Source: Candidatus Uhrbacteria bacterium (GTDB lineage: Bacteria; Patescibacteriota; Patescibacteriia; UBA9934). From it: 47,691 nucleotides of DNA. Each line of letters starts with the position of its first letter. Within the stretch, counting starts at the first letter, position 1. Location of the stretch: positions 1 through 47,691 of the forward strand of contig JABHCP010000019.1 in the NCBI GenBank assembly GCA_018673485.1, given 5' to 3'. The notes under the pieces were generated by a model. The model made no database searches and had not been told where the DNA came from. It worked only from the letters and a program-made list of their open reading frames with translations. Both the position numbers and the translations under genes were made by a program. Positions 18,821 to 24,737 of the stretch are shown in pieces.

Positions 18821-18865
18821 AAGGTCTGACCTTGCAAGGTCTGGCCTTGGGAGGTTAGACCTCGC
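18821..18865. repeat. Three 15-bp palindromic units
   Basis: AAGGTCTGACCTTGC / AAGGTCTGGCCTTGG / GAGGTTAGACCTCGC, followed by TGTGGATAA. Confidence 0.9.
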
Positions 18866-18884
18866 TGTGGATAAATAGCATAAA

Positions 18885-18906
18885 CCCTGTACCAGGCGGT
18901 ACAGGG
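18885..18906 (-). terminator. Terminator CCCTGTACC..GGTACAGGG
   Basis: downstream of 18962..19237. Confidence 0.65.
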
Positions 18907-18961
18907 CGCGGCCCTACGCGAGTGAGGCGTGAGGTACTAGAGCAATCGATTCGATCGAATG

Positions 18962-19237
18962 CTAGAACGTGAGGCTGTAACGGTAGAGACATGCGAAGCC
19001 GATGGCACCGATGGCACAAACTATGAACGATACCTTGGCACGGTCTTTCCAAGAATCTACTCTGGCACCATGAGTTAAGAACCATTTCTTGTGTTCAGGA
19101 ATCATATTGTAGGAATCGCGAAGCATATTTCTGACGCTTCCCAGCCTACGCAGTTCATAGATCTTACATACATGTACCGTCATGCTTACGGTGGCAAGAA
19201 GTCCGAAAAATACAGCGAAACCAGCAAACGCGATCAT
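18962..19237 (-). CDS. 91-aa two-TM protein
   Basis: start corrected to MIAFAGFAVFFG after GGGAGGAAGG; hydrophobic segments at both ends. Confidence 0.65.
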   Translation of the reverse strand: MIAFAGFAVFFGLLATVSMTVHVCKIYELRRLGSVRNMLRDSYNMIPEHKKWFLTHGARVDSWKDRAKVSFIVCAIGAIGFACLYRYSLTF

Positions 19238-19300
19238 CCTTCCTCCCAGGATCACGAAGTTCTTAAAGATCTAACCAAAATGCCAACAAAAAAGCAAACA

Positions 19301-19324
19301 GCTCTGCACCACACGGCGCAGAGC
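19301..19324 (-). terminator. Terminator hairpin
   Basis: GCTCTGC..GCAGAGC then T-run on minus strand. Confidence 0.65.
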
Positions 19325-19362
19325 ACAAAGCAGCCACGAGGGACCACAAAAGTACAGATCGA

Positions 19363-19584
19363 TCACCCAACAATGTTTGGCAAGCGCCAAAATGTGACAA
19401 CGATGACGGCAATGAAGCCAGTGATGGTCACAGATCCTAGCGCGAGTGACGCTAGAAACCACCACCAACACGACTCTCTTTTCTCTGAACGCTCCATGGT
19501 CTTTCTCCTGGTGTAGTCATAACCCCAAAGTGCGATCGTGGACAATGCAATCATGAGGATCGCAACTGCTGGCGGAACAAGCAT
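19363..19584 (-). CDS. 73-aa two-TM protein, paralog A
   Basis: MLVPPAVAIL...VIVVTFWRLPNIVG*; GGAGGGGAG RBS. Confidence 0.75.
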   Translation of the reverse strand: MLVPPAVAILMIALSTIALWGYDYTRRKTMERSEKRESCWWWFLASLALGSVTITGFIAVIVVTFWRLPNIVG

Positions 19585-19643
19585 CTCCCCTCCGTGGAAG
19601 TAGTTCCATACAATTTAATCATCAGATAAATTAAAAAGCAAAT

Positions 19644-19667
19644 TCCGCAGCCCCGAAGGACTGCGGA
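19644..19667 (-). terminator. Terminator TCCGCAGTCC-TTCG-GGGCTGCGGA
   Basis: UUCG tetraloop and T-rich tail on minus strand. Confidence 0.75.
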
Positions 19668-19698
19668 CGGGAGTATTAACCTGTTTGACCGGCAAGGA

Positions 19699-19920
19699 TC
19701 AACCGATGATCACAGGCAAATTCCAGAACGTGACGACACACAAGATCGTGAATAGGGTGAAGCCCAGCACAATCAGTCCTCTCTGAATCCACATCATGCG
19801 TGCAGCTCGCCAAGGCTCAACGCCAGGACGCATGCGCCGTCTGTCGATCCAAGAAGCGAGCATCACGATACCAAGAACTGAAACAAGAAGAACAATTACC
19901 ACAATGGGCGGAACGATCAT
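19699..19920 (-). CDS. 73-aa two-TM protein, paralog B
   Basis: MIVPPIVVIV...LCVVTFWNLPVIIG*; GGAGG RBS; same length as paralog A. Confidence 0.75.
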   Translation of the reverse strand: MIVPPIVVIVLLVSVLGIVMLASWIDRRRMRPGVEPWRAARMMWIQRGLIVLGFTLFTILCVVTFWNLPVIIG

Positions 19921-19930
19921 TACGCACCTC

Positions 19931-20170
19931 CTAGAACTGAGATCCAAGTGTCATGCAAAGCGTCAGTCCTATGACTATGACTAGTCGGCAGGCGACATCA
20001 TCAATGCGCACCCACCACTCGTTGATGTTGTCGGAAAAGTCATAACGACCACTGATACGCTTGAATAGTTTTTGACGCCAGTGACTCCATGCGACCAAAA
20101 TAGCCACAAGAACGCACACAGATGGAACAACGATAAACCAAACCGTGAATCCAGTAAAAGCTTCGATCAC
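19931..20170 (-). CDS. 79-aa two-TM protein (GTG start)
   Basis: CGGAGGTGTGAT-GTG; MIEAFTGFTVWFIVVPSVCVLVAILVAW...LVIVIGLTLCMTLGSQF. Confidence 0.65.
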   Translation of the reverse strand: MIEAFTGFTVWFIVVPSVCVLVAILVAWSHWRQKLFKRISGRYDFSDNINEWWVRIDDVACRLVIVIGLTLCMTLGSQF

Positions 20171-20268
20171 ATCACACCTCCGAAGTGAGTAATTCAAATA
20201 TATTAAATCAATTTGCAAACAAAAAAGCAACCCGAACGGGTGCTCGATCAATAATTAAATAGAGCTAT

Positions 20269-23504: not shown

Positions 23505-23671
23505 ATCAAAAGCCAAAAGCCCCACACCAGACGGAATGGGGCACAGCCCCACACCGAAGTGCGGGACCACGTATCGATCCAAGGTTTCCCGTTCAAGGTC
23601 TAACCTTGGAAGGTCAGGCCTCGACTTCTGCGAGGATCTTGCGGAGTGCAGCTTCGAGCTCCTCAGGCGTG
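23505..23671 (-). repeat. Duplicated 3' cassette, copy 1
   Basis: terminator hairpin, 15-bp palindromic units and TPEELEAALRKILAEVEA*-coding tail; homologous to 24070..24271. Confidence 0.85.
23595..23624. repeat. Two 15-bp palindromic units
   Basis: AAGGTCTAACCTTGG / AAGGTCAGGCCTCGA. Confidence 0.8.
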
Positions 23672-23745
23672 TTGATCACGATCGCTTCGCCGTAGTTACC
23701 CGATGGCGGGCAGACGAGAATGACTAGAATCTCGAACTTCGAGAT

Positions 23746-24006
23746 CTAATCGACAACCGATGCGGTATACCGCGCTTCCAACAAGTTCACGACAATCGCA
23801 CCGGTAGGGACACCTAATCCAAAGTCCAGGATTGGATCCGTCTGACGCAGATCCCATAGCCTTTTTGACGCATGAGCAAATCTCGCAACAGGACCACACA
23901 AGATCTGAATTCGGTCATCGATCCCTGCGACCAAGGCATCGAGCCGCACATCTGCATCTGGAAAATATGGGCCACCTAACTCCTCTACAACGAACACTCC
24001 GAGCAT
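23746..24006 (-). CDS. 86-aa ORFan; same frame stays open for 43 more codons after TAG (to 23614)
   Basis: AGGAGAGGAG RBS; ORF ends ...TASVVD-TAG then ISKFEILVILVCPPSGNYGEAIVINTPEELEAALRKILAEVEA*. Confidence 0.5.
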   Translation of the reverse strand: MLGVFVVEELGGPYFPDADVRLDALVAGIDDRIQILCGPVARFAHASKRLWDLRQTDPILDFGLGVPTGAIVVNLLEARYTASVVD

Positions 24007-24069
24007 GAAAAAACTCCTCTCCTGCGTGGAATTGCAGGATAATTAGATTACCTTGGCAATCGAATGCTG

Positions 24070-24271
24070 TCAAAAGCCAAAAGCCCCACACCAGTCGGTG
24101 TCGGGCACAGCCCCGCGTCGAATGTACGACACAGGACCACGATTTGATTCGGAGTCTAACTCCTAGGAGTCCGACTCCCGGGAGTCCAACTCCCAAAGGT
24201 TAGACCTTGGAAGGTCAGGCCTCGACTTCTGCAAGGATCTTGCGAAGTGCAACCTCGAGCTCCTCAGGCGT
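24070..24271 (-). repeat. Duplicated 3' cassette, copy 2
   Basis: same order of elements as copy 1, with an expanded 5-unit hairpin array. Confidence 0.85.
24151..24225. repeat. Five 15-bp palindromic units
   Basis: GGAGTCTAACTCCTA/GGAGTCCGACTCCCG/GGAGTCCAACTCCCA/AAGGTTAGACCTTGG/AAGGTCAGGCCTCGA. Confidence 0.92.
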
Positions 24272-24737
24272 CTTGGCCGGAATCGGAGTCAGACCTCGGC
24301 ATCTCCTGAGTCGCATCAGTATCATCGCGAGCCTTCTTACGCAAACGAACTCCAACCGAAATGAATACCCCTAACGACACAACAGCGAAAGGCCACATGA
24401 AACACATGAGACATACACATACTGCCACAGTCCAAAACTGCCACAATAAATCTGACGACGGAACATGTGAAGTCACCCAAAAACCCCATAGCAAAGTACA
24501 AAATGAATGAACGCCAGTGGTGACCCCAAAGGTACGAACAAAGTTCTCGGGCCAAAAGCTTTCATGATGATTTGCCATATACCCAACAACCAAAAATCCG
24601 GCTATTACCACATACGTCAATATGTACGTGAACCAAAAGTAGCTTCCATTGAAGAGTCTTTCGATAATGGACAGACTAAGCAGCCCAACAGACATGTACG
24701 CGAGAAAAAACGTGATCATCTTCAAACGAACGAGCAT
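24264..24737 (-). CDS. 157-aa four-TM hypothetical protein
   Basis: AAGGAGGGG RBS; four hydrophobic segments; C-term SDSDSGQDA*. Confidence 0.6.
   Translation of the reverse strand: MLVRLKMITFFLAYMSVGLLSLSIIERLFNGSYFWFTYILTYVVIAGFLVVGYMANHHESFWPENFVRTFGVTTGVHSFCTLLWGFWVTSHVPSSDLLWQFWTVAVCVCLMCFMWPFAVVSLGVFISVGVRLRKKARDDTDATQEMPRSDSDSGQDA

What the first reader, a model, noticed from the sequence alone, without database searches (positions are those of the whole stretch)
23505..24271. Duplicated 3' cassette: conserved peptide tail + hairpin array + terminator behind two unrelated ORFs
23505-23671 and 24070-24271 share AAAAGCCAAAAGCCCCACACCAG...GGGGC/GGGC hairpin...GGACCACG...palindromic units...AAGGTCAGGCCTCGACTTCTGC.AGGATCTTGCG.AGTGCA.C.TCGAGCTCCTCAGGCGT. 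On the minus strand both encode TPEELE(A/V)ALRKILAEVEA-stop. In that stretch I see four differences: three synonymous, one Ala/Val, implying selection on the peptide. The upstream ORFs (86-aa soluble, 157-aa four-TM) are unrelated, so the tail behaves as an exchangeable 3' module. The stop codon overlaps the first palindromic unit.
Basis: partly seen in the sequence, partly recalled or inferred. Interest (0 to 1): 0.78.

Follow-up and report, generated by a model that had tools for sequence, protein, structure and literature searches.

The report
Duplicated gene ends in orphan-gene island
In a small-genome bacterium, two neighbouring genes without known relatives carry near-identical tail ends (last codons, RNA hairpins and terminator) left by a local duplication; the repeated peptide reads in line with only one of the two genes, and there only after a stop codon, so it is not a working exchangeable protein module.

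Summary
The repeat is real: 80 nt at 90% and 53 nt at 87% identity. The peptide-module reading mostly fails. Tail A lies in the frame of the 86-aa ORF, but 25 codons behind a TAG (23746-23748). Tail B is in a different frame from the 157-aa ORF, which ends on a TGA that the cassette itself supplies (24264-24266). No third tail was found in this genome, nor any homologue in 96 relatives. Three synonymous changes of four is not significant (P about 0.05-0.10). Codon usage does suggest that the tail once was a genuine C-terminus. The better-supported conserved features are RNA hairpins. Hairpin 2 keeps all 10 pairs although 5 changed; the terminal hairpin recurs behind two further orphan-gene clusters of this genome, with paired changes. 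The ftsL-iPGM neighbourhood is conserved in 15 relatives: the gap is 54-416 bp in 13, but 1.6-1.9 kb with unrelated small genes in this genome and two others, one of which (G008) also shows duplicated gene ends. Best explanation: local duplication followed by deletion or conversion inside an orphan-gene island, joining gene B to the 3' end of an A-like copy. Ordinary genome turnover, with one informative detail: gene ends recur while gene bodies do not.

The parts
23749..24006 (-). ORF A, 86 codons (stop TAG 23746-23748), orphan; with the TAG read through the frame runs 130 codons to the tail
   Evidence: codon score 0.24 per codon in frame, negative in all other frames; no Pfam or PHROG match
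23746..23748 (-). In-frame TAG between ORF A and its tail, next to an imperfect palindrome (23727-23748)
   Evidence: TAG ends 9 of 26 long ORFs in the window, so it is an ordinary stop here
23617..23670 (-). Tail copy A, TPEELEAALRKILAEVEA, stop TGA at 23614-23616
23579..23609 (-). Hairpin 1 of copy A (fold-back of palindromic units, CCAAGGTT...AACCTTGG)
23545..23568 (-). Hairpin 2 of copy A, GGTCCCGCAC-TTCG-GTGTGGGGCT, 10 pairs
   Evidence: sequence; alignment
23520..23541 (-). Hairpin 3 of copy A, terminator-like, followed by GCTTTTGGCTTTTG
24264..24737 (-). ORF B, 157-aa orphan membrane protein; its TGA (24264-24266) lies inside the tail DNA
   Evidence: no homologue in 96 relatives, no Pfam above cut-off
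24285..24297 (.). Palindromic unit GGAGTCAGACCTC within ORF B, 10 nt from the edge of the homology; possible junction
   Evidence: junction role is inference
24218..24271 (-). Tail copy B, TPEELEVALRKILAEVEA, out of frame with ORF B
24151..24208 (.). Hairpin 1 of copy B: units GGAGTCTAACTCC, GGAGTCCGACTCC, GGAGTCCAACTCC, AAGGTTAGACCTT, folding back over 52 nt
24109..24138 (-). Hairpin 2 of copy B, GGTCCTGTGTCG-TACATT-CGACGCGGGGCT, 12 pairs
24084..24105 (-). Hairpin 3 of copy B, terminator-like
24045..24073 (-). Promoter-like TTGACA-17-TAATCT of gene A, overlapping the T-rich end of B's terminator
   Evidence: read from sequence; below the tool's threshold
18885..18914 (-). Third copy of hairpin 3 plus GGGCCGCGCCC, behind a cluster of orphan small membrane ORFs (18962-20250)

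Best explanation
The site between ftsL and iPGM of this genome carries an insert of two small orphan genes read on the minus strand, gene B (157-aa membrane protein) upstream of gene A. Gene A's original 3' end was the tail codons, TGA, hairpins 1-3 and a terminator-like end. A local duplication of A's 3' end, or of the whole A gene, followed by a deletion or conversion within the array, joined gene B to a second copy of that end near a palindromic unit. The junction is out of frame, so B now stops at a TGA two codons into the copied tail, and keeps the copied hairpins as its terminator. Gene A later gained an in-frame TAG and is probably a damaged gene. What is maintained afterwards is mainly the RNA structure of the 3' untranslated region, not the peptide. 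Shown: homology, frames, copy number, conserved neighbourhood with short gaps in relatives, hairpin pairing. Inferred: order of events, role of palindromic units, that hairpin 3 terminates transcription.
For: Homology limits and identity; frame of A and of B against their tails; codon score of the tail in its frame; only two tail copies in the genome. Tandem neighbours, same strand, 564-601 nt apart. mraZ-rsmH-ftsL-iPGM order is kept in 15 relatives, with ftsL-iPGM gaps of 54-416 bp in 13 of them against 1567 bp here; A and B are orphans. G005 (1806 bp) and G008 (1939 bp) hold different small genes at the same site, and the G008 insert has its own repeated gene ends (65 nt with start codon and first codons; 71 nt), at 80-85% identity. 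Further orphan clusters of this genome have terminators repeated within the cluster (C13 42 nt 90%; C18 36 nt 83%). Hairpin 2 retains all 10 pairs between A and B although 5 pairs changed, 2 on both sides (sequence); hairpin 3 pairs in 94% of cells over 4 copies with 3 of 9 pairs changed on both sides.
Against: No intermediate is seen in any relative, so duplication plus deletion cannot be told from gene conversion or from an insertion of the cassette. Four copies are few for covariation: 41 of 500 shuffles do as well. The terminator scan finds none at its strict criteria. The TAG might be an assembly error or a strain variant.
Confidence: 0.68

Rival explanations
1. A mobile 3' cassette (MITE- or REP-like element, hairpins with tail codons as passenger) inserted behind ORFs.
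For: Sharp ends of homology; palindromic units; hairpin 3 recurs at four places of the genome, all behind orphan ORFs; hairpins with a similar core exist in 8 of 383 other genomes of the phylum, control 0.
Against: Full cassette only twice and adjacent; no terminal inverted repeats or target-site duplication seen in the alignment; outside the genome only the short hairpin core matches, in mixed contexts such as tRNA ends and gene interiors; palindromic units overall are hardly above the control pattern (94 against 83).
Confidence: 0.15
2. The peptide tail is a functional C-terminal module used by both genes, through read-through of TAG in A and +1 frameshifting or re-initiation in B.
For: Coding-like codon usage of the tail in its frame (0.6% and 0.1% of off-frame windows as high); 3 of 4 changes synonymous; an internal ATG with AAGAAGG 6 nt upstream opens a 36-codon frame that includes tail B.
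Against: Two independent recoding events would be needed; TAG is an ordinary stop here (9 of 26 long ORFs); the synonymous excess is not significant; no third copy and no homologue.
Confidence: 0.07
3. Plain tandem duplication of one ancestral gene, whose bodies diverged beyond recognition while the ends stayed alike.
For: Tandem, same strand; some neighbouring orphan ORFs elsewhere are paralogues (W73 and W82, E = 1.7e-7; three C18 ORFs weakly).
Against: Homology ends abruptly 4 nt upstream of the tail; body A is soluble and B is a four-helix membrane protein, with no similarity between A and B.
Confidence: 0.08

Closest known systems
Orphan-gene islands ('dark matter islands', described for archaeal genomes, PMC4158269; abstract only read)
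   Same: Cluster of short, fast-evolving, narrowly distributed genes between conserved genes
   Different: Bacterial small genome; very short arrays at a conserved site; repeated terminators and gene ends
REP/MITE-type and Rickettsia palindromic elements (PMC2229807, PMC10969869; titles and abstracts only)
   Same: Palindromic units that form hairpins, some overlapping coding sequence
   Different: Low copy number; no mobility signature; the unit is joined to a terminator and to codons of one gene
Intrinsic (rho-independent) terminators duplicated with their genes
   Same: GC-rich hairpin followed by a T-rich stretch at gene ends
   Different: T-run interrupted (CTTTTGGCTTTTG), preceded by two more hairpins; not accepted by a strict scan
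Integron gene cassettes with attC sites (general knowledge)
   Same: Small orphan ORFs in one orientation separated by imperfect palindromes; copy B has GTCTAAC...GTTAGAC, fitting the RYYYAAC/GTTRRRY core letters
   Different: Genes seem to have their own promoters and terminators; core letters occur in units of other spelling too; integrase not searched

Membership tests
Mobile repeat (MITE/REP-like) | Many dispersed copies of the whole element in the genome | tested here: not met
   Whole cassette twice, adjacent; only hairpin 3 at four sites
Mobile repeat (MITE/REP-like) | Terminal inverted repeats and target-site duplication | tested here: inconclusive
   None seen in the two-copy alignment; no recent empty site from the same species available
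Intrinsic terminator | Stable GC-rich hairpin directly followed by T-run at gene 3' end | tested here: inconclusive
   Strong hairpins, z = -4.9 to -5.3; T-run interrupted and strict scan negative
Exchangeable C-terminal peptide module | Tail in frame with more than one unrelated protein | tested here: not met
   A in frame only past TAG, B out of frame
Orphan-gene island | Genes without homologues, inserted between conserved neighbours whose order is kept in relatives | tested here: met
Integron cassette array | IntI-type integrase and attC sites with bulged bases | not tested
   Only the core heptamers were noted by eye; no integrase search was made

The most novel reading that the evidence does not exclude
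Small-gene islands of this bacterial family diversify by keeping gene ends (promoter with start codons, or last codons with hairpins and terminator) and replacing gene bodies through recombination at hairpin-forming palindromes: a cassette-like system without a dedicated recombinase. The G008 insert at the same site (shared 5' ends with start codons in front of different bodies) and the A/B pair (shared 3' ends) would be two snapshots.
Probability: 0.1. Interest if true: 0.65.

Novelty: new member of a known kind. Interest (0 to 1): 0.3.

Why it matters
If the pattern holds, sites such as ftsL-iPGM show how small bacterial genomes gain and lose orphan genes, and how untranslated ends with hairpins act as seams for recombination. 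It also warns that a repeated, mostly synonymously varying peptide need not be a translated module: reading frames must be checked first.

Tried and rejected
Tail as a sorting or export tag: rejected, no other copies in the genome at E up to 10. TAG recoding: not favoured, TAG ends 9 of 26 long ORFs. Known RNA family: no match near the cassette in Rfam. Phage or plasmid origin: none found for ORF A in viral contigs and phage records, nor for ORF B in viral contigs and plasmids. Terminator hairpin as a widespread cassette: the 30-nt pattern hit four unrelated records of genome contigs (L073 has related hairpins inside a possible reading frame) and no viral contig; the looser core gave 8 other genomes in 383 of the phylum, in mixed contexts. 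Palindromic unit RRGTYNRACYY as a genome-wide repeat: 94 matches against 83 for the control. Paper searches for palindromic repeats, integrons or orphan small genes in this group of bacteria gave nothing on point. An integrase search and a structure prediction were not run.

Full report
What is there. The window is contig 21 of a 1.03-Mb genome; genome size and gene content suggest a member of the Patescibacteria (inference, no name was given). On the minus strand both carry TPEELE(A/V)ALRKILAEVEA followed by TGA, then three hairpins and a T-rich end.

Frames. The 86-aa ORF ends at TAG 23746-23748; its frame goes on for 43 open codons, the last 18 of which are tail A. So A is a 130-codon frame with one internal stop. 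Tail B is not in the frame of the 157-aa ORF: that ORF enters the cassette one base out of register and stops at the TGA formed by the second and third tail codons, AC-GCC-TGA-GG. The tail is therefore not attached to both proteins. TAG ends 9 of 26 long ORFs of the window, so it is an ordinary stop.

Is the peptide selected? Four differences, all transitions, three synonymous. Simulated random changes give three or more synonymous in 5% (any change) or 10% (transitions only) of cases; the tail (4/54) is not significantly more alike than the rest of the repeat (11/79; P = 0.28). Codon usage of the tail in its frame is coding-like: 0.6% (A) and 0.1% (B) of stop-free off-frame windows of the same length score as high. 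The two copies are not independent. I read this as a former or actual C-terminus of gene A, copied once.

Copies. The tail occurs twice in the genome even at E up to 10. ORF A with tail has no homologue in 96 relatives (one weak hit at E = 0.06 in the body), ORF B none; cassette B none in the 72 other genomes of the order. Pfam, PHROGs, viral, phage and plasmid searches gave nothing convincing.

RNA structure. Hairpin 2 is GGTCCCGCAC-TTCG-GTGTGGGGCT in A and GGTCCTGTGTCG-TACATT-CGACGCGGGGCT in B: ten common pairs, five of them changed, two on both sides, none broken when G-U is allowed (read; the B form is the predicted fold, while the lowest-energy fold of A pairs the same strands differently). 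Hairpin 3 recurs at 18885 of the window and on contig 18 at 18064, behind other orphan ORFs; over the four copies 94% of cells pair and three of nine pairs have changes on both sides, with all slid controls far lower, though 41 of 500 shuffles do as well with so few sequences. All tested segments fold better than shuffles (z -3.5 to -6.0).

Setting. mraZ, rsmH, ftsL and iPGM are neighbours in this genome and in 15 of 16 relatives fetched; in the sixteenth (G004) only mraZ and rsmH were found. The ftsL-iPGM gap is 54-416 bp in 13 relatives, 1567 bp here, 1806 bp in G005 and 1939 bp in G008. The longer inserts hold different small ORFs. In G008 two ORFs share 65 nt of upstream sequence including the start codon and the first codons, and a 71-nt segment with a hairpin is repeated too. 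Other orphan clusters of the window's genome (C13, C18) have terminators repeated within the cluster. So repeated gene ends around unlike gene bodies are a recurrent trait of these islands, seen at 3' ends here and at a 5' end in G008.

Mechanism. I propose duplication of an A-like 3' end and a deletion or conversion that joined gene B to it, possibly at the palindromic unit at 24285-24297. This explains the orientation, spacing, out-of-frame junction and lack of further copies. The order of events is inferred. Confidence 0.68. A mobile element (0.15), a translated module (0.07) and divergence of a plain duplicate (0.08) are less likely, for reasons given with each.

Novelty. Orphan-gene islands, palindromic repeats and duplicated terminators are known kinds; this is a new instance. 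The most novel open reading is an end-preserving, body-replacing mode of orphan-gene turnover.

Noticed in passing
window 18855-20250: Cluster of small orphan membrane ORFs on the minus strand between a nucleotidyltransferase-like gene and a PAP2-like gene; two (19363-19584 and 19699-19947) are paralogues with a common end VVTFW.LP.I.G (E = 1.7e-7). In G001 the same gap is about 2.7 kb, in several other relatives near zero.
   Followed up: partly
L021 13129-14631 (G000 contig 18): Three GC-rich orphan ORFs of 122-144 aa in one orientation, weakly alike, each followed by a hairpin of the type CCCCGCACCGAT..ATCGGCTGCGGGG and each with a promoter-like sequence.
   Followed up: partly
L017 8481-9700 (G000 contig 13): Two orphan ORFs (148 and about 185-212 aa) with nearly identical terminator-like ends (42 nt, 90%).
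   Followed up: partly
L064 5425-7372 (relative G008, same site): Insert of small ORFs in which two unlike ORFs share 65 nt including start codon and first codons MTFG.
   Followed up: partly
L073 6200-6600 (MAG BP7.bin63): Several related hairpins (GGGGCTGTGCCCTGTACCGTCTGGTACAGGG and variants) close together, perhaps within a coding region.
   Followed up: no
window 24154-24205: GTCTAAC...GTTAGAC at the ends of a 52-nt fold-back resembles the core heptamers of integron attC sites; probably chance, as related units are spelled differently.
   Followed up: no
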